This document shows, in pieces, positions 2,345 to 16,956 of a DNA stretch of 20,275 nt. Made by a program: the position numbers and the translations under genes. Position 1 is the first letter of the stretch; each line of letters starts with the position of its first letter. Location of the stretch: positions 1 to 20,275 of IMG/VR virus record IMGVR_UViG_3300045995_000947; one strand, 5' to 3'. Source of the stretch: a virus. A model generated the notes under the pieces. That model was not told the DNA's origin and did no database searches. It saw nothing but the letters and a program-made list of their open reading frames with translations.

Positions 2345-2770
2345 ATGTCAACAACCAGGATCAAAGGATACATGCTCACCCTGAAAATAGGGGGCAAGTA
2401 TATCAAGGGTCTCGAAACAACAGGGCTGAAGGTGAAGCCCAACTTCGAGGAAACCCTGCTGAAGGAGAACGCCGGGAACCCTGTAAAGGAGTTCACTGAT
2501 TATGATGGCGATCTGACCTTCGGAGGAAAGACTTACATACGCGATGGATCTGAAAGCGGAACAAATGAGGATTTTCAGACTCTTCGCCAGGCATCATCGC
2601 TCGGAGCTCAGGTAGCTTTCATTTACGGGAGATTTTCTACCAGTGCGAAGAGAGTGGCAGGTTACGGAAAGATCACTGATTTCGGAGAGGATTCAAACTC
2701 GAAGGATACAGGGAGCTTCTCCGGTACCGTAAAGGTTAAAAAAGGTTCAGTAACATTCCCAACTTCATAA
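2345..2770 (+). CDS. Major tail tube protein, copy A
   Basis: A 141-residue protein of the short tail-tube type (TP901-1 family plan). It has N-terminal beta strands (RIKGYMLTLKIGGKYIKGLE), a TFGGKTYIRDGSES centre and a C-terminal DFGEDSNSKDTGSFSGTVKV beta hairpin. Tube subunits stack as hexamer rings to form the tail shaft through which DNA passes. It is directly followed by a clear paralogue. By hand alignment about 79 of 138 positions are identical, and the blocks KPNFEET, TFGGKTY, ITDFGED and NSKDTGSFSGT are the same in both. The position before the chaperone and tape measure genes supports the call. Which copy is the main tube subunit cannot be told from sequence. Confidence 0.8.
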   Translation: MSTTRIKGYMLTLKIGGKYIKGLETTGLKVKPNFEETLLKENAGNPVKEFTDYDGDLTFGGKTYIRDGSESGTNEDFQTLRQASSLGAQVAFIYGRFSTSAKRVAGYGKITDFGEDSNSKDTGSFSGTVKVKKGSVTFPTS

Positions 2771-2773
2771 GCT

Positions 2774-3208
2774 ATGTTAGGAGAAAGAATAAAAGGTTAT
2801 CGCCTGAATATTCAGGTAGGTGACAATATGATAAGAGGTCTCGAGACAGCTGGTCTGAAGATCAAACCCAACTTTGAAGAGACTATTCTGAAAGAGATGA
2901 ACGGATCTGCAGAAGAGGAGCTTGTCGATTTCGATACTCAGATGACTTTCGGAGGAAAAACCTATCAGAAGGATGGCTCCGAATCCTGGGAGGATTTTGA
3001 AACGCTCCGGGAGCTCGCATTCGCTGGGACGAATATAGCCTTCACTTATGGCATCCTCGAGGAAGGTGAAGATGTTGTAACCGGCACCGGAGTGATAACC
3101 GATTTTGGTGAGGATGCCAACTCGAAAGATACCGGTTCTTTCTCTGGAACTATTGATGCAGATAAAGGATCTGTAGAGTTTGGTGCCTACACTCCACCAG
3201 TAGCATGA
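2774..3208 (+). CDS. Tail tube protein paralogue, copy B
   Basis: A 144-residue tandem paralogue of the preceding tail tube protein, only 3 bases downstream and in the same orientation. It shares the whole fold, with one two-residue gap near the centre (after DGSES). It differs by a more acidic surface (EEGEDVV, NGSAEEELVD), against the more basic copy A (STSAKRV, VKVKKGSV). It extends a few residues further at the C-terminus (FGAYTPPVA). Two intact, diverged tube-type subunits may form a mixed tube, or one may specialise, for example at the tail tip or neck. Its stop overlaps the next gene's ATG (ATGA). An origin by gene duplication is inference from the tandem arrangement. Confidence 0.8.
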   Translation: MLGERIKGYRLNIQVGDNMIRGLETAGLKIKPNFEETILKEMNGSAEEELVDFDTQMTFGGKTYQKDGSESWEDFETLRELAFAGTNIAFTYGILEEGEDVVTGTGVITDFGEDANSKDTGSFSGTIDADKGSVEFGAYTPPVA

Positions 3209-3555
3209 AAGCCGATTACCTTACACTAACCAACGGGAGAAAGGTCCGCATTGAGTGGAACTGGAATGCTGTAAAAAGCTGGACCAGATCTACAGGAAAA
3301 GTTCTGGCTGATCTCGCATCTCTTAAAGCTGGTCCTGATGATATGCTTTCTATAGCTTACCATTCAGCTATCGAGGGAGAGGAAGCAGATGGAAGAGAGC
3401 TCGGACTTACTGAGAAAGAGTTTGGCAGGCTGATAAATATGCAGGGCATAATTGAGTTCTCTAAAATACTTACAGAGCAGGCAACTACCGAGGAGCAAAA
3501 AAAAAGCAAAGCTCCACCGAAATCACCGAGGATCTTCTTCAGGAACAAAACATAG
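3205..3555 (+). CDS. Tail assembly chaperone, gpG-like (upstream frame)
   Basis: A 116-residue protein in the slot of lambda gpG, between tail tube and tape measure. It opens MKADYLTLTNGRKVRIEWNW, continues with helices, and passes through a lysine stretch encoded by nine A residues at 3497-3505 before a short basic tail ending at TAG. About 100 of the residues precede the A-run. In lambda and relatives this protein coats the tape measure during tail assembly, and a small fraction of ribosomes shift -1 to make a longer form. The open frame in -1 downstream fits that model (see the slippery site and the downstream frame). The start is ATG overlapping the tail tube stop. Confidence 0.8.
   Translation: MKADYLTLTNGRKVRIEWNWNAVKSWTRSTGKVLADLASLKAGPDDMLSIAYHSAIEGEEADGRELGLTEKEFGRLINMQGIIEFSKILTEQATTEEQKKSKAPPKSPRIFFRNKT
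3498..3504 (+). other. Programmed -1 frameshift slippery site (A AAA AAA)
   Basis: The gpG-like frame reads CAA AAA AAA AGC here. The heptamer A AAA AAA lets both tRNAs re-pair after slipping one base back. The -1 frame then continues without a stop from this point to 3957-3959, while the 0 frame ends at 3553-3555. The frame before and after the run, and the position between tail tube and tape measure genes, are those of the conserved G/GT chaperone frameshift of siphophages. Frameshift efficiency cannot be judged from sequence. I did not identify a clear stimulatory stem-loop downstream. Confidence 0.85.
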
Positions 3556-3959
3556 ATCTCGCTGATTTATCAAAGTTCACCTATGCAGTAATGTATAGAA
3601 AGGCTCTCGGAGCAATGAATTATACGCCTGAGCGCTTCGGTCTGATGAGAGTGGGAGATTTCTTTGATGCCCTGGCAGGACATGATGAAGCTGAACTTGA
3701 AAGATTTAAATGCAGTGCAGAACTTATACGAACATCGACAACAATTCTCAGGAATGCCCATGTGATTAACGAGTCGGATCTGAAAACGGCAGAACAGTTA
3801 TGGCATTTTCCCTGGGATAAAAAAGAAGAAGAGCAGGAAGATTCTGAGATGCTTACAGAAAAGAGAGAAGAAACTGAAACCGATTTACTCAGGATACTAA
3901 AAAGACAAACCGAAAATGGGCACAGTAATAAGCCAGCTGAAGGCGAAATTCGGAGTTGA
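3504..3959 (+). CDS. Tail assembly chaperone, T-like extension read by -1 frameshift
   Basis: This frame codes the C-terminal extension of the gpGT-type fusion. After slipping, translation gives KQSSTEITEDLLQEQNIDL, then a helical domain with YAVMYRKALGAMNYTPERFG, and a charged C-terminal tail (KKEEEQEDSEMLTEKREETE). The fusion from 3205 would be about 251 residues, 100 before the site and 151 after it. In lambda the T domain contacts tail tube subunits while G binds the tape measure. The first ATG in this frame is at 3591, but coding character begins before it, which argues for entry by frameshift rather than a separate start. The end overlaps the tape measure start by 44 bases. Confidence 0.8.
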   Translation, partial: KQSSTEITEDLLQEQNIDLADLSKFTYAVMYRKALGAMNYTPERFGLMRVGDFFDALAGHDEAELERFKCSAELIRTSTTILRNAHVINESDLKTAEQLWHFPWDKKEEEQEDSEMLTEKREETETDLLRILKRQTENGHSNKPAEGEIRS

Positions 3960-5475
3960 TACGTCAGATTTTAAGAAAGGTCTGAAAGAGGGCGAACAGT
4001 CTCTCAATGCTTTCAAAGGAGCTGGCAGCGATATCCTCGATCAGTTCGCTTCGATGTTCGGAGTTAATATGGGAGCCGTTAATGATGCCATTGGCACAGC
4101 AAATAAATCACTCAATTTTTTAGGGACGTCATTCAAGGCAGCAGCAAAAGGTGGAGATATAATGGCTATCTCCATGAAGGTGCTGAAATTTGCTCTCATA
4201 TCTACAGGTATAGGAGCTATCGTTGTTGCCCTGGGATCTCTGATTGCCTACTTCAAAAAATCCGGTGAGGGATCTGATAAGTTTGCTAAGATAATGATGC
4301 AGCTCCGATCGGTTATTGACAATGTTATTGAGCGCCTGGCAATCTTTGGCAAAGGAATGTGGGAGATTGTGACAGGTAAGTTCAAACAAGGCTGGCAGGA
4401 TATGACATCCGCATTCAAGGGAATGGGTACAGAGATCAAAGAGGACTGGAAGGCAGCCGGTCAGCTTGCCGATGCTCTCGATGCTCTCGAAGATAAGGAG
4501 ATCGCAATGTTATCCGTTCAGGAGGAGAGAAAAACGAAAGCAGAGCAGTTGCGCACGCAAGCAAAGGAAGAGACAGAGGATATGAATAAAAAGCTGGCTC
4601 TGCTGAAGGAATCCAAAGCGCTTTATAAACTCTATTATGATGAAGCCATAGCTCTCGAAACTCAGAGACTTGCTCTCATGCAGCAGCAGCTTAACATGCA
4701 GACCAAAGATCCTACTGATGAACAGCGGAGATCTATCCAGGAGCAGATACTTAAAGTTCAGCAGTTAAAGACTGCACAACAGGAGCAGATGGGCAGCTAT
4801 GCCAAGATGATTAATTCCACGAATAAAGCTGTTGACGACGCATTTAAGAAATTTAACTCTTACAGCCAGCTAAAGATCCCGCAGCTTCTCAATCAAAAGG
4901 TATATGATAATATCAATCAAAGTCTGAAAGGGCTTCATCATACTGCTATCAGTTTAGGCGAGGAGATATCTTCTCTTTACCTGGTAATGGGTCAGGTGAG
5001 TATAGATGCTACAAAAGCTATAAATGAAGGTCTGACTTCAATGGCTGAAGGCTTCGGTGAGTTTATCGGAAATCTTGCATCAGGACAGGCAAGCATGGGA
5101 GATTTTGGTAAACTGATCGGGACTGTTTTTGCAGATATGGCTATTAACGTCGGTAAGGTCGCAATCGGAGCCGGCATGGCAGTGCTTGGTATTAAAGAGG
5201 CTCTCATGTCGCTTAATCCATATGTTGCTATTGCAGCTGGTATCGCTCTTGTTGCGCTTGGTTATGCCATCAAAGGATCTCTTAAAAGCGCAGCATCGGG
5301 AGGAGGAAGCGCTTCGGGTGCTTCATCGAGCCCTGGCAGCTTTACATATGACACAACCACAACCAAAAAGGCAGCACCCATTGAGGTGCATATTACAGGA
5401 AAATTAACAGGCAAAGGATCTGACCTGGCAGCAATAATTGATTATGAATCCAATCGCAAAAGAATATTAACTTAA
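3916..5475 (+). CDS. Tape measure protein
   Basis: A 519-residue protein that sets tail length. It starts GTVISQLKAKFGVDTSDFKKGLKEGE, the usual opening of tape measure proteins. It has a hydrophobic helix at about residues 91-117 (KVLKFALISTGIGAIVVALG), a long charged coiled-coil region about 195-330, and two more hydrophobic helices near 415-460. A Gly/Ser-rich linker and a small C-terminal beta segment (PIEVHITGKLTG) end it. At the rule-of-thumb 0.15 nm per residue the tail would be near 78 nm. The hydrophobic helices fit a role in channel formation during DNA entry. The gene overlaps the chaperone frame upstream, and its TAA shares bases with the next ATG (TAATG). I see no peptidase or lysozyme domain. 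Confidence 0.9.
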   Translation: MGTVISQLKAKFGVDTSDFKKGLKEGEQSLNAFKGAGSDILDQFASMFGVNMGAVNDAIGTANKSLNFLGTSFKAAAKGGDIMAISMKVLKFALISTGIGAIVVALGSLIAYFKKSGEGSDKFAKIMMQLRSVIDNVIERLAIFGKGMWEIVTGKFKQGWQDMTSAFKGMGTEIKEDWKAAGQLADALDALEDKEIAMLSVQEERKTKAEQLRTQAKEETEDMNKKLALLKESKALYKLYYDEAIALETQRLALMQQQLNMQTKDPTDEQRRSIQEQILKVQQLKTAQQEQMGSYAKMINSTNKAVDDAFKKFNSYSQLKIPQLLNQKVYDNINQSLKGLHHTAISLGEEISSLYLVMGQVSIDATKAINEGLTSMAEGFGEFIGNLASGQASMGDFGKLIGTVFADMAINVGKVAIGAGMAVLGIKEALMSLNPYVAIAAGIALVALGYAIKGSLKSAASGGGSASGASSSPGSFTYDTTTTKKAAPIEVHITGKLTGKGSDLAAIIDYESNRKRILT

Positions 5476-6047
5476 TGGCATACGGTCTGAAATATGAGCT
5501 TTTATGTACTTCAAAGATTGTGAAGAATGCCTACTCTTTGCAGCTTCTGTTTGACGGATATTCTGATGCAGCCATTGATAGAAATATGCCAGCTTCTTCT
5601 CCGATTGTTTTACGGAAGGATGCAGCTGCTGTTATTCGTGGAACTTCTCTCGAGTTTAGCATAAGGGAGGAAGTCGATTTTGAACTCGATGAGTTCTATA
5701 CCAATAACCCGAAGAAGATACAGGTAGTTTTAAATGATGCAAACTCCCAGCCCATTTGGTATGGCTTTGTGTTACCGCAGCAATACCAGGCTCCTTATAT
5801 TCCTTCTCCGAATACTGTAAGATTCACGGCGACAGACGGTCTGGGACTCCTTAAGAATGAAGCCTTCGCTCTTACAGGCAGGGTAACTCAGCTTGCAATT
5901 CTCCTTTATTGTGTTAACAAGGTTGGTCTCGACATATCATATTCAATAGCAATTAATCTTTTTGAGGCAAATCACGATACAGATCTCTCTCCGCTGGATC
6001 AGACTTATGAAGATGCACAGATCTATGCTTTAAAAGGGATGAACTGA
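5475..6047 (+). CDS. Tail tip/baseplate protein, N-terminal part, up to an in-frame TGA
   Basis: This 190-residue frame is the N-terminal domain of a tail-tip protein common in Bacteroidetes phages. It opens GLKYELLCTSK, has VIRGTSLEFSIREEVDFELDE, then WYGFVLPQQYQAPY, and FTATDGLGLLKNEAF. The frame meets TGA at 6045-6047 and goes on in the same frame, without any other stop, to 8627. The residues on both sides (LKGMN before, YDVVEAILGKY after) read as one continuous helix, so the natural gene probably spans 5475-8627, about 1050 codons. If TGA stops translation, the product is the domain alone without tip and receptor-binding parts. The start is ATG overlapping the tape measure stop. Confidence 0.8.
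   Translation: MAYGLKYELLCTSKIVKNAYSLQLLFDGYSDAAIDRNMPASSPIVLRKDAAAVIRGTSLEFSIREEVDFELDEFYTNNPKKIQVVLNDANSQPIWYGFVLPQQYQAPYIPSPNTVRFTATDGLGLLKNEAFALTGRVTQLAILLYCVNKVGLDISYSIAINLFEANHDTDLSPLDQTYEDAQIYALKGMN
6045..6047 (+). other. In-frame TGA codon within the tail-tip gene
   Basis: This is codon 191 of the reading frame that begins at 5475, and it is the only stop codon in the frame before 8625-8627. It is one substitution away from TGG (Trp) or from TGT/TGC (Cys). From memory of the family, a Cys or aromatic residue often precedes 'YDVLE'. TGA is a normal terminator elsewhere here, for example at the stops of the genes ending at 1056, 1442, 3208, 8627, 12828, 13449, 15187 and 18710. The codon could be a nonsense mutation, a sequence error or a readthrough site. 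Confidence 0.9.
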
Positions 6048-6056
6048 TATGATGTT

Positions 6057-8627
6057 GTGGAAGCTATACTTGGTAAATATGATGCAGAGATAACCCAGAC
6101 AAACGCTCAGTGGCATATTACAGCAAGCGACTGTAAGCAGAGCGAAAGAATGCTTTATACTTTTGAAGGTGTTTATGATGATACGCAGGCAGCTCCTGCT
6201 GTGCTTACTCTGGGTAAACGTGCAACTGGAGATGTGTATCCGGTTGGATCTCTATCGAGGACTCTCGAACCGGGAGCAAAAAAGGTAACTCTGTCACATG
6301 ATTATGGCAGAAAAGGAAGCCTGCTCGATAACTATGACTTCAGCCAGTTTGATGGCTCTAATTTCACATCATGGGAAAAGGTAGGATCAGGATTTACCCT
6401 CTCCCAGAGGATATATGAAGGCAAACCATGTTGCTTTATTGCGGGTTTTGCCTCAATACAACCTCTCAGGATTGCCCAGCAGATTCCTATTGAAAATGTT
6501 CCTGACGAAGCCTTTGTATTTGAGCTTGACTTTGCTCCTATAGGCAACTCGCAATCAGCAGGAGGGTTCTTTCCTGTAAGTATGGCAGTAAGATTCACAG
6601 TCATCCTTGATGTGGGCAATACTTCATGGTACCTGACAAAAACAGGATGGTCAACTACTTCCGCATATATCGAGGAGATTGTTACAGCGGGCATGGTTTC
6701 TCCTGTATGGAACCATATAAAGATTATTACCGATGAGCTTCCCGGATCAGGGTATCTTGACGTCAGTTTATACAGGTATTATTTAGGTACTCCTGCTCGT
6801 CCGGGTGATACTTTTTCGGGTATATGGTACTCGCAGCCACTTGTATATTTCATGAATAACGGTCAGCTCTACCCTTCGGGTGTTAAGATGACTGCAACAT
6901 TTGATAATAGCACAGAGCCCGGAGATCTCGGAGAGATTGATGTGATGATAGCAGATGCTCCGGATCTTCCGAATAAGTCTCTTCTCTATTTTAATATAAC
7001 CAGGTTAGACGATGGATCACCAACTCTCAACTGGATCAGGCTTGGAGAATCTGTTCAGTATTCTCTTATTGCACAGCTAGCGAGACTACTTGCAAGCCGG
7101 AGCAGGGTAGCCAGGCAAAAACTATCAGGAACCATAAGAGGATCTAGTATAAATCCAAACAGTATTATCACTCATCCATATAACGGCAACCGTAATTTTG
7201 AGATAGCTGAGATGAGCTGGGACCTGTATGAAGAGAAATTCGATGTTACTCTTATAGAACTTTTAGACTGGAGCAGTGAAGCAATAACTTTTACAGTTGA
7301 GAATACAAATGCAGGCGGAGGATCTTCCACCACAGGAGGCACGATAATAGGAACTATCGGAGGCAATGATGCAGGGCAGGGAGCTTCAAGCCTTGCTTTT
7401 CAAACACCGGCCTTTGCTAACCCTCTGGATCTCGATGCAACTCTCTATAAAAACTTTAAGCCCGGAATAGCAACAGGTAACAGTGTTATAAATGTTTTGA
7501 ACGCTTCAGATGGAGATGTGGGAATGATTGAGCTTATCATTGATGGCACAGGAGGCTATACTATCACTATGGGCAATATGTTCACAAAGCGCATAGGAAG
7601 TGCAGAGATTGATACCGCTGCCGGGGCTGATAACTTTATTGTTTGGCGAAAGATTCTCGATGATTATGTTTATGAAGTGTTAGGAGGTATAGATCTCTCA
7701 TCTGAGGCGGTGCTTGCTCTCGATAGTATATCCGCAGGTCCGATAACTGCTAATTCATCAGGAGAGTTCGGGGTCGATTATACAATAGTAAACTCGGGAG
7801 CCGGAGCAGGTACCGGAGTTGTTGACTGGCAGATTACCCTGGATGGCGATGTGGTATCGAGCGGATCGTTCAGATCTACTATGGTTGATCCGGTTACTCC
7901 TCTTGAGGGTACGCTTACTCTTATAGCTCCCTCAGTAGTTGATGATTATGTTATATGGATGAAGATGAGAACCGATGATACATTTACATTCAATATAGCG
8001 TTGACCGTTCAATCTTCTGTAGAAATTACCAGCATTGATACAATACCTGATGTGGCTAATGGGCAAATATTTAGAGTTTTATATTATCTGAATAATATAG
8101 CCGAAGCTAGTCTTATGCGAACGATTAACTGGCGGGTACTCGATGTTGTGGGAGGTATGTTGACAAGTGGATCTATATATCAATTAATTGAACCCGGAGA
8201 ACATTACACTGCTATAGATATTTTAATTCCATCAGTTGCACAAAGCGGGCTAATCCTCGAATTGAGTATCACGGGAGAATCCCTTGAGGCGGTCAGTTCT
8301 AATGAGTTTGCCGCTATTGCAGTAACGCTTAATCATATAGATACAATTGGTAATGTTTCGATTGGTGATTTTTTCACATATTATTATGAGGTGACTTCTG
8401 CTGCGGCCTGCCGTTTAGATTTTCAGGCTTTAGTAAGGACCAACACCCATGAGCAAATGCTGGTTGTGCAAGGGGGAATTATGTTATCTGCAGGAACAAA
8501 TACTCTTTCTCAAAATATTGACATTCCTAATGAGAGCAGCTATATCATGACTGATGCTGACGTTCTGATGCGTAAATGGGGTGGCGCTAATCAAATAATA
8601 TCGAATCATTTTAATATAACAGGATGA
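6057..8627 (+). CDS. Tail tip/baseplate protein, main part with three C-terminal Ig-like repeats
   Basis: This is the continuation, in the same frame, of the gene beginning at 5475; the GTG at 6057 is a nominal start without visible translation signals. From it, 856 residues are encoded. About residues 1-85 complete the N-terminal tail-tip domain (ILGKYDAEITQTNAQWHI). About 90-330 look like a beta-sandwich, carbohydrate-binding-type insertion (DNYDFSQFDG, FVFELDF). About 330-410 return to the tail domain (YSLIAQLARLLASRSRVARQ). A Gly/Ser-rich stretch and a small domain follow to about 540. The last 305 residues fall into three units of about 102 (CARDB/Ig-like). The protein probably sits at the tail end and contacts the host surface. 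The stop overlaps the glycosyltransferase start (ATGA). Confidence 0.78.
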   Translation: MEAILGKYDAEITQTNAQWHITASDCKQSERMLYTFEGVYDDTQAAPAVLTLGKRATGDVYPVGSLSRTLEPGAKKVTLSHDYGRKGSLLDNYDFSQFDGSNFTSWEKVGSGFTLSQRIYEGKPCCFIAGFASIQPLRIAQQIPIENVPDEAFVFELDFAPIGNSQSAGGFFPVSMAVRFTVILDVGNTSWYLTKTGWSTTSAYIEEIVTAGMVSPVWNHIKIITDELPGSGYLDVSLYRYYLGTPARPGDTFSGIWYSQPLVYFMNNGQLYPSGVKMTATFDNSTEPGDLGEIDVMIADAPDLPNKSLLYFNITRLDDGSPTLNWIRLGESVQYSLIAQLARLLASRSRVARQKLSGTIRGSSINPNSIITHPYNGNRNFEIAEMSWDLYEEKFDVTLIELLDWSSEAITFTVENTNAGGGSSTTGGTIIGTIGGNDAGQGASSLAFQTPAFANPLDLDATLYKNFKPGIATGNSVINVLNASDGDVGMIELIIDGTGGYTITMGNMFTKRIGSAEIDTAAGADNFIVWRKILDDYVYEVLGGIDLSSEAVLALDSISAGPITANSSGEFGVDYTIVNSGAGAGTGVVDWQITLDGDVVSSGSFRSTMVDPVTPLEGTLTLIAPSVVDDYVIWMKMRTDDTFTFNIALTVQSSVEITSIDTIPDVANGQIFRVLYYLNNIAEASLMRTINWRVLDVVGGMLTSGSIYQLIEPGEHYTAIDILIPSVAQSGLILELSITGESLEAVSSNEFAAIAVTLNHIDTIGNVSIGDFFTYYYEVTSAAACRLDFQALVRTNTHEQMLVVQGGIMLSAGTNTLSQNIDIPNESSYIMTDADVLMRKWGGANQIISNHFNITG
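7707..8624 (+). repeat. Three diverged Ig-like repeat units in the tail-tip protein
   Basis: Each unit is about 102 residues: 7707-8012, 8013-8318 and 8319-8624. They begin alike (LALDSISAGPITANSSGEF; VEITSIDTIPDVANGQIF; VTLNHIDTIGNVSIGDFF), with a strand, then an N/S-G-x-F turn and a second strand (VDYTIVN, VLYYLNN, YYYEVTS). Each later has an 'LxPG' or 'LSAGT'-type turn before I-D-I-x-I-P. Identity is low, so this is an old amplification at protein level, not a DNA repeat. Such domains on virions usually bind surface glycans. Confidence 0.65.
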
Positions 8628-9730
8628 AATTAAGCATCATAACTCCTACTCATGATATAACCTTCCTGAAAGAACTGGAAGCGAGTATCCTCGTCCAGAC
8701 TTACCAGGATTGGGAGTGGGTTATTTTGCTTAATCATGGAGCTGAATATTCAGCAACAGACGAGAGGATAAAGATTGAAGATTGTCCCTTTGAAAGTGAT
8801 TCAGTAGGACTTCTTAAAAGGATTGCATGTATGCAGACCACAGGAGATATCATCATCGAGGTTGATCATGATGATATGCTTACTCCTGACTGCCTGGAGA
8901 AAGTCGCAAATGCATTTGAAGATCCTTTGGTAGGTTTTGTTTATTCAATTAATGCTAAACTGAGCAAAGATTTCAGACCATACGGAGCTGAGTATGGATG
9001 GAGTTATGGCTTCTACAAATGGAAAGGGCAGAAGCTCTATGCAATGGATAATCAGCCACTTTATCCTGGCAGGCTCGGTTATATATGGTTCGCTCCTGAT
9101 CATATAAGGGCATGGAGAAAGTCAGTCTACGACGAGATCGGAGGGCATAATGATTCTCTTTCTGTCTGTGACGATTTGGATCTGATGCACAGGCTTTATC
9201 TGAAAACAAAGTTCAAAGAGATCCCGGAGGTACTTTATATCTACCGGATCACGAAGAACAATACTTTCTTATGCAAGAATGAACTGATACAGCAGACGAC
9301 ACAGAAGCTCTATAATAAGAACATTCTCGCCCTGGCTGAAAGGTATGCAGATCTAAACAGTCTGAAATGCGTAAAACAGGAAGAGATCCAGCCCGGTTTT
9401 CTTACGAAGTATTCTGACAATTCTATAGGGCTCATTGTTGCCACAGATCAGCTAAATATGATAGAGGATCAGAGAGCTCTTATGACAGAGATCCATCGTG
9501 TTTTAGCTCCCGGAGGAATGCTGATCAGTTCAACTCCTTCAACGGATGGTCCGGGAGCCTTCGCAGATCCGAGAGTTAAATCATATTGGAATGAGCATTC
9601 TTTCAAATACTGGACCCAGGAGAAGTATGCCAGGCAGATAAATAATAAAAGGCTCTTCAGGGTATGCAGACTCTGCACAAAACCTATTGATGAGATACCA
9701 CATGTAATTGCACATCTTGAAAAAATATAA
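8624..9730 (+). CDS. GT2-family glycosyltransferase fused to a C-terminal half of a SAM methyltransferase domain
   Basis: A 368-residue protein. Residues about 1-215 are a GT-A fold family 2 glycosyltransferase: SIITPTHDITFLKELEASIL and QTYQDWEWVIL at the start, the metal-binding DxD in IIEVDHDDMLTPD, and the late CDDLDLMHRL and IPEVLYIYR motifs. Residues about 240-345 match only the second half of a class I methyltransferase (SDNSIGLIVATD, EIHRVLAPGGMLISSTPSTD, FADPRVKSYWNEHSFKYWT). The Gly-rich motif I that binds SAM is missing. The transferase part looks complete. Likely substrates are tail or capsid proteins, or host surface sugars; a gene between tail tip and tail spike favours a virion target. 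The start overlaps the tail-tip stop. Confidence 0.88.
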   Translation: MKLSIITPTHDITFLKELEASILVQTYQDWEWVILLNHGAEYSATDERIKIEDCPFESDSVGLLKRIACMQTTGDIIIEVDHDDMLTPDCLEKVANAFEDPLVGFVYSINAKLSKDFRPYGAEYGWSYGFYKWKGQKLYAMDNQPLYPGRLGYIWFAPDHIRAWRKSVYDEIGGHNDSLSVCDDLDLMHRLYLKTKFKEIPEVLYIYRITKNNTFLCKNELIQQTTQKLYNKNILALAERYADLNSLKCVKQEEIQPGFLTKYSDNSIGLIVATDQLNMIEDQRALMTEIHRVLAPGGMLISSTPSTDGPGAFADPRVKSYWNEHSFKYWTQEKYARQINNKRLFRVCRLCTKPIDEIPHVIAHLEKI

Positions 9731-15707: not shown

Positions 15708-16175
15708 TTATTCAGCTTTACTCAGCTCCTGAATGTTTATGAGTAGATTATAATTATTAAACTCTCTGCTTGGTTGGGTTATTTCTTCTACACTTGCTTC
15801 CCATTTTTTACCGTTCATTAGGTCAATAAAGATCCTGTCATTCCAATCTTGATTCGGCAGCCATCCGAGCATTTTTCCAGTTTTCATGCAGACTTTTGTG
15901 GCTGTCTTGTCATATTTATTCTCAGGATCTGGAACTAATAACACCTCTGTTCCACGTTTTAGTTTCTTTTCATTCATTAATATTGTTTCCTCACAACCAT
16001 TATGTCTGACTCCTGAAAGAGTGGTTTGGAAGGAATCATTGATCCGTATATTATAAGATGGATCAAAATTTTTATTCCATTTTCTGTAAAATTCCTTCCC
16101 TTTTTGTCTTGTAATTATTGACATGATGATATAAATAACGATCATGCCAGCTATAATGATAAGAAATGTTTTCAT
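15708..16175 (-). CDS. Membrane-anchored HIRAN-domain protein
   Basis: From the chosen ATG (complement of 16173-16175) the protein has 155 residues: an N-terminal membrane helix (about 3-21, TFLIIIAGMIVIYIIMSII), a basic linker, and a HIRAN-type domain at about 50-132. The domain shows LSGVRHNG, then GTEVLLVPDPENKYDKTATKV, then GKMLGWLP, which is the hallmark 'PxNxYDxxA...G' order. HIRAN domains in helicases such as HLTF bind DNA 3' ends, and they also occur alone in bacteria. An upstream in-frame ATG at 16199 would overlap the lipoprotein gene by 16 bases; the ATG used leaves a normal 8-base gap. It is the last of three reverse-strand genes, probably accessory. Membrane-tethering of this domain is unusual. 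Confidence 0.75.
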   Translation of the reverse strand: MKTFLIIIAGMIVIYIIMSIITRQKGKEFYRKWNKNFDPSYNIRINDSFQTTLSGVRHNGCEETILMNEKKLKRGTEVLLVPDPENKYDKTATKVCMKTGKMLGWLPNQDWNDRIFIDLMNGKKWEASVEEITQPSREFNNYNLLINIQELSKAE

Positions 16176-16183
16176 AATTTGAC

Positions 16184-16414
16184 TTATTGCATCGTACATG
16201 ATGCATTTTTAGTTGTATTTCCGCTTGTAGATCCTCGCTCAAAGGCTTTGATTTCAGATAGGCTTTTATCGCATATTGTTTCATGCCCTGATGTGGTAGA
16301 AGTAGCTCCGGGTGAATATGTTGTTCTGGATACATAGCAGTCCCAACAGAACTTTGCATCTTTTTCGCAGGAGAATAATGCAATTAGTATAAGGGCAAAT
16401 AATATTTTTTTCAT
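16184..16414 (-). CDS. Small lipoprotein, probable moron
   Basis: A 76-residue protein with a clean lipoprotein signal: MKKILFALILIALFSC, Cys16 in the lipobox, followed by the acidic EKD. An acidic stretch just after the Cys is typical of Bacteroidetes lipoproteins exported to the cell surface. The mature part is short, with Cys residues (FCWDC and later CDKS, SCTM) that could form disulfides, and is rich in Ser/Thr. Function unknown; a small surface lipoprotein encoded against the phage's late genes could alter the receptor surface during lysogeny. The start lies 7 bases from the upstream gene's stop, suggesting an operon of three. Confidence 0.7.
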   Translation of the reverse strand: MKKILFALILIALFSCEKDAKFCWDCYVSRTTYSPGATSTTSGHETICDKSLSEIKAFERGSTSGNTTKNASCTMQ

Positions 16415-16421
16415 GAGAAGA

Positions 16422-16838
16422 TTATTTCATTAAGTATTCTTTATTGCCAAATATCGAGTCGGCAATTTTTGACATTTCATTCCAGGCTTCTAGGATCGGA
16501 CTGCCTTTCATACCACTATATTGGATATCATACCATTCTGAGGGCGAATTAATTGCCGTACTATATTGACCTCTCATGGTTATTTTCCGATCAGCGATAA
16601 GGAAGGTAAATTTTACAGTTCCTCGCTTATAAGATTTCCCTGTAGTTGTTATGGTACCCATACCAGGATCTGAGCTTAATATTCCATAACCATTCTCAAA
16701 AAGAAGGGTATTTATTTGTTTTAAATATTCAGTTTGAGTAGCAGATCCGGCAATCAGGATCGTATTTGCTTTCTTCGGAATCTGCGCTCCAGCGAGCATT
16801 GATATCAGGATTAAAGAAGTAAGAAAAGCGGTTTTCAT
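16422..16838 (-). CDS. Secreted protein of unknown function, probable moron
   Basis: From ATG at the complement of 16836-16838 the protein has 138 residues. It starts with a signal peptide (MKTAFLTSLILISMLAGAQ) ending near AGA-Q, a typical signal peptidase I site. The mature domain of about 120 residues alternates helix and strands (TEYLKQINTLLFENGYGIL, then GTVKFTFLIADRKITMRGQY), a plan seen in many short Bacteroidetes secreted proteins of unknown role. An upstream ATG at 16862 would put eight residues before the signal and is less likely. It is first in the reverse-strand set, so its promoter should lie in 16839-17000, but I found no convincing one on this strand. Confidence 0.7.
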   Translation of the reverse strand: MKTAFLTSLILISMLAGAQIPKKANTILIAGSATQTEYLKQINTLLFENGYGILSSDPGMGTITTTGKSYKRGTVKFTFLIADRKITMRGQYSTAINSPSEWYDIQYSGMKGSPILEAWNEMSKIADSIFGNKEYLMK

Positions 16839-16956
16839 TGCAGTAATTTTAAATAATAACATAAAAATAAATTATTCCGGTGACATTAAAATGCTGAAAA
16901 CCATAAAATAATATTTAGAATGTGTATAAATTACGGATAAGGGATATTTTTTAAGA

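What the first reader, a model, noticed from the sequence alone, without database searches (positions are those of the whole stretch)
5475..8627. Tail-tip gene of about 1050 codons split by a single in-frame TGA
The two parts (5475-6047 and 6057-8627) are in the same frame, separated only by TGA and three sense codons. The residues on both sides form one helix of a known tail-tip domain. TGA is one base from a Trp or Cys codon and the rest of the frame is clean, so there is no sign of decay. It may be a recent nonsense mutation that kills the phage, a sequence error, opal suppression, or programmed readthrough making a short and a long tail protein. A phage switching host-range proteins by readthrough would be new.
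Basis: partly seen in the sequence, partly recalled or inferred. Interest (0 to 1): 0.7.

Follow-up and report, generated by a model that had tools for sequence, protein, structure and literature searches.

The report
Private stop codon in phage tail hub
One phage contig has a stop codon exactly where all 29 compared related loci have a cysteine in the tail-hub gene; it looks like an ordinary nonsense mutation or sequence error, not a new way of switching tail proteins.

Summary
In detail: 5475-8627 is one frame interrupted only by TGA at 6045-6047 (codon 191), and homology to intact relatives runs unbroken across it. Codon 191 is an invariant cysteine: all 29 close related loci (about 25 distinct phages) carry TGC or TGT there; none has a stop. 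The gene encodes a gp27/VgrG-like tail hub with an inserted carbohydrate-binding-like module. The stop cuts inside the hub fold, at the first residue of a helix, so the 190-residue piece is unlikely to be a functional short tail protein. I found no support for recoding: TGA is the ordinary stop of 12 of 29 window genes; there is no tRNA, no SECIS-like hairpin, no suppressor tRNA in 11 related virus records, and no SelB or tRNA-Sec in five MAGs carrying related prophages. A relative in the same collection (L077) has a private stop in the same gene family, within a 109-base cluster of transversions against a near-identical contig, which looks like base-call error. Best reading: a consensus error or a recent inactivating nonsense mutation; only reads can separate these. 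Weak opal readthrough supplying the few hub copies a virion needs is not excluded, but nothing points to it.

The parts
5475..6047 (+). 5' part of the tail-hub gene, 190 codons, ending at the internal TGA
   Evidence: 66% identical to the first 186 residues of the L018 homologue
6045..6047 (+). In-frame TGA at codon 191, followed by T (UGAU); invariant cysteine in relatives
6048..8627 (+). 3' part of the same frame, 859 codons; 6048-7313 conserved hub, 7314-8627 variable C-terminal extension
   Evidence: fold model of 5475-7313
6312..6869 (+). Inserted carbohydrate-binding-module-like (beta-sandwich) domain within the hub, about residues 280-465
   Evidence: VIA-align Z 13-14 to CBM4/CBM16 chains and tailspike modules

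Best explanation
The TGA is a private, single-base loss of a conserved cysteine codon in an otherwise intact gene for a gp27/VgrG-like tail hub with a variable C-terminal extension. It is either a wrong base in the metagenome consensus or a real, recent nonsense mutation that leaves this genome unable to make its hub. It is not a functional recoding site. Shown: the position, the frame, the invariant cysteine, and the absence of a shared TGA, suppressor tRNA or SECIS in what could be searched. Inferred: that the truncated product is useless and that the lesion is recent. I put error and true mutation at roughly equal odds.
For: All 29 close loci, about 25 distinct phages, have TGC or TGT at this codon and none has a stop; the column is invariant in 20 relatives. 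A scan of viral contigs for the motif with TGA gave 4 hits, none homologous to this gene. The Cys version, slightly narrower, gave 32, of which about 21 are homologues aligned across the site. TGA terminates 12 of 29 window ORFs, and 60 Cys codons are ordinary TGT/TGC. The hub fold spans about residues 14-610 and is cut at residue 191. The near-identical pair L076/L077 shows a private stop in the same gene family among six transversions confined to 109 bases, without reverse transcriptase or a second copy of the stretch.
Against: The lesion is alone: I saw no other broken gene in about 19 kb of coding sequence, so there is no sign of general decay or a poor assembly. Raw reads were not available. 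The window is a 20 kb fragment, so part of the phage genome and the whole host are unseen.
Confidence: 0.9

Rival explanations
1. Leaky UGA: a near-cognate tRNA reads the stop at a few percent, and because a virion needs only a few hub copies the phage still assembles; the stop may even set hub dose.
For: UGA is a leaky bacterial stop, with a 6% readthrough level cited for a catA86-TGA mutation in B. subtilis (PMC7918605). Phage Qbeta uses UGA readthrough for A1 (PMC8067240). The downstream frame is clean.
Against: No relative has it. The base after the stop is U; +4U is reported to reduce read-through, whereas +4C is the inefficient UGA context (PMC5289835). No unusual downstream structure (z +0.87). 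A short hub fragment would be made in large excess.
Confidence: 0.06
2. UGA is decoded as cysteine or selenocysteine at this site (Sec/Cys exchange, or a tRNA-Cys with UCA anticodon).
For: The position is an invariant Cys, the residue expected for Sec or UGA-Cys recoding. selC* tRNA-Cys with a UCA anticodon exists in some anaerobes (PMC7609411).
Against: No SECIS-like hairpin. No tRNA in the window. Related phage records carry only Pro and Met tRNAs. Five MAGs with related prophages lack SelB over cut-off, and the tRNA-Sec hits checked are tRNA-Ser. 12 genes end in TGA. The review lists selC* tRNA-Cys from other phyla, not Bacteroidota.
Confidence: 0.02
3. A functional two-piece hub: the N-terminal 190 residues and a reinitiated C-terminal piece from GTG 6057 assemble together.
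For: An in-frame GTG lies three codons after the TGA.
Against: No relative is split here. The cut falls in the hub fold at the start of a helix.
Confidence: 0.02

Closest known systems
gp27/VgrG-type tail hub proteins (T4 gp27, Mu gp44, VgrG1)
   Same: Predicted fold of about residues 14-610 aligns at Z 15-18 over about 300 residues
   Different: A beta-sandwich CBM-like insert at residues 280-465 and a long variable C-terminal extension; this copy carries an internal TGA
Phage Qbeta coat/A1 UGA readthrough (PMC8067240)
   Same: UGA inside a structural gene with an open frame after it
   Different: In Qbeta the short product is the complete major coat protein and readthrough is a normal step in expression; here the stop falls inside a fold and is seen in one genome only
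L077 private TAA in a distant tail-tip homologue
   Same: Single private in-frame stop in the same gene family and collection, frame otherwise intact
   Different: Sits among six transversions in 109 bases against a near-identical contig, so looks like base-call error; the window has no such comparator

Membership tests
gp27/VgrG-like tail hub | Hub fold | tested here: met
   AlphaFold pLDDT 90.8; VIA-align Z 17.9 (rmsd 4.1, 311 aligned) to VgrG1 and Z 17.9 to phage Milano hub, Z 16.1 to T4 gp27. The model was made with the TGA read as Cys.
gp27/VgrG-like tail hub | Gene follows the tape measure gene in a tail module | tested here: met
   TMP-like 3916-5475 (PHROG 3336, E 1e-5) directly upstream
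Programmed stop-codon readthrough | Stop conserved among relatives | tested here: not met
   0 of 29 close related loci
Programmed stop-codon readthrough | Leaky context or stimulatory structure | tested here: not met
   UGAU context; fold z +0.87
Programmed stop-codon readthrough | Short product is itself functional | tested here: inconclusive
   Stop lies at residue 191 of a hub fold spanning about 14-610; not assayed
Selenoprotein | SECIS hairpin just downstream of UGA | tested here: not met
   No hairpin of 4 or more pairs with a G at the start of the loop in the bacterial window; no Rfam match in the window
Selenoprotein | SelB and tRNA-Sec in the host | tested here: inconclusive
   Host unknown; in five MAGs bearing related prophages no SelB passes the cut-off and the best tRNA-Sec hits are tRNA-Ser
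UGA-recoded phage | TGA absent as a terminator, or in-frame in several genes | tested here: not met
   12 of 29 ORFs end in TGA; only one in-frame TGA
UGA-recoded phage | Phage suppressor tRNA | tested here: inconclusive
   None in the 20 kb fragment; relatives carry only tRNA-Pro or tRNA-Met; the rest of this genome is not held

The most novel reading that the evidence does not exclude
A weak UGA in a hub gene, whose product is needed in only a few copies per virion, sets hub dose by low-level readthrough in this one phage lineage.
Probability: 0.04. Interest if true: 0.5.

Novelty: already known. Interest (0 to 1): 0.1.

Why it matters
It matters mainly as a caution: a single in-frame stop in one metagenomic phage contig, where every relative has a sense codon, is the expected signature of a base-call error or a fresh nonsense mutation. 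If readthrough were shown in virions, it would be a rare case of a tailed phage setting hub copy number with a leaky stop.

Tried and rejected
DGR origin of the L077 stop: rejected, no reverse transcriptase and no second copy of the stretch in the related records. Genome-wide UGA recoding: rejected by stop usage. One pattern scan was wasted on a mistyped sequence and is no evidence. The 859-aa C-terminal part gave no relatives by the short-peptide method, probably because much of it is variable; relatives came from the N-terminal query and profile. PDB sequence search gave nothing useful; the hub fold was seen only by structure comparison. L039 and L047 also showed same-frame homology after their stops, but there the stop lies at the end of the conserved part with an ATG at or just after it, so these look like separate downstream genes, not premature stops.

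Full report
Observation. The window is a 20,275-base virus record, probably a fragment, since the longer relatives are 34-38 kb. The frame 5475-8627 is open except for TGA at 6045-6047. The other two frames of the stretch hold 72 and 99 stops per 1050 codons, so 859 open codons after the TGA is not chance. ORFs of relatives align straight through it: L018/L098 match 5475-7313 at 57% identity over 609 residues, with this as the only stop. Divergence from L018 is concentrated at third codon positions on both sides, though that reflects the long history before the lesion.

What the codon is in relatives. I collected relatives from viral contigs and genome contigs. In the 29 close loci, which are about 25 distinct phages after removing duplicates, the codon is TGC or TGT, nearly always followed by Tyr. 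In a 21-row alignment the cysteine column is invariant. More distant homologues carry Cys, Tyr, Lys, Phe or others, never a stop. A scan of the viral collection for the motif with TGA gave four hits, none homologous to this gene. Within what could be searched, the TGA is private to this contig.

What the protein is. The gene lies directly after a tape-measure-like gene in a head-tail and tail module. A model of residues 1-613, made with the TGA read as Cys and 20 relatives as alignment, has mean pLDDT 90.8. It matches tail hubs: VgrG1 and phage Milano at Z 17.9, Mu at Z 16.5 and T4 gp27 at Z 16.1, with rmsd about 4 over about 310 residues. Residues 280-465 form an inserted beta-sandwich like carbohydrate-binding modules (Z 13-14). 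After residue 613 the sequence is variable between relatives, as expected for host-range parts (inference). Codon 191 is the first residue of helix 191-200, inside the hub fold, so the 190-residue product would be an incomplete hub (inference from the model). This speaks against a short and a long functional tail protein.

Recoding tests. TGA ends 12 of 29 ORFs, and the window has 60 TGT/TGC cysteine codons and no other in-frame TGA. No tRNA is present, and the related virus records that have a tRNA carry only tRNA-Pro or tRNA-Met. No Rfam family matches. The 61 bases from the UGA onward fold no better than shuffles (z +0.87), and no hairpin with a G at the start of the loop lies in the SECIS window. 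Five Bacteroidota MAGs carrying related prophages have no SelB over the cut-off, and their best tRNA-Sec hits are tRNA-Ser; the real host of this phage is unknown. The stop is UGAU; +4U is reported to reduce read-through and +4C to weaken UGA termination (PMC5289835). UGA-decoding tRNA-Cys is described from other phyla (PMC7609411). Phage UGA readthrough of a structural gene is known from Qbeta (PMC8067240).

How such a stop can arise. Among the 82 relatives examined, L077 has a private TAA in the same gene family. It differs from L076 at six positions in 7,699, all transversions inside one 109-base stretch, and the frame continues intact after the stop. No reverse transcriptase or second copy of the stretch was found. 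The clustering and the mostly A-to-C and G-to-T types look like base-call errors in a thinly covered stretch (inference). The window's TGA may have the same kind of origin, or may be a true recent mutation. Published work also finds in-frame stops over-represented in the phage and transposon category of genes (PMC7918605).

Verdict. An ordinary private nonsense codon, by error or mutation, in a normal tail-hub gene. Reads decide between the two. Leaky readthrough remains possible at low probability, because a virion needs only a few hub subunits (established for gp27-type trimers; general knowledge).

Noticed in passing
window 3205-3959: Two ORFs joined by a run of nine A (3497-3505); the -1 frame is open from there into 3591-3959, the layout of the programmed frameshift in tail assembly chaperone genes.
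   Followed up: partly
L077 4839-4947 against L076: Two otherwise identical phage stretches differ by six transversions, all in 109 bases of the tail-tip gene, one creating a stop; likely base-call errors, no DGR parts found.
   Followed up: yes
window 8624-9730: A protein with an N-terminal glycosyltransferase-2 domain and a C-terminal methyltransferase domain lies right after the tail hub gene; several related phages have a homologue.
   Followed up: no
window 2345-2770 and 2774-3208: Two adjacent similar genes in the place of a tail-tube gene, apparently a tandem duplication; relatives' ORFs match both copies.
   Followed up: no
window 15708-16862, minus strand: A small reverse-strand block including a HIRAN-domain protein inside an otherwise forward-strand phage segment.
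   Followed up: no
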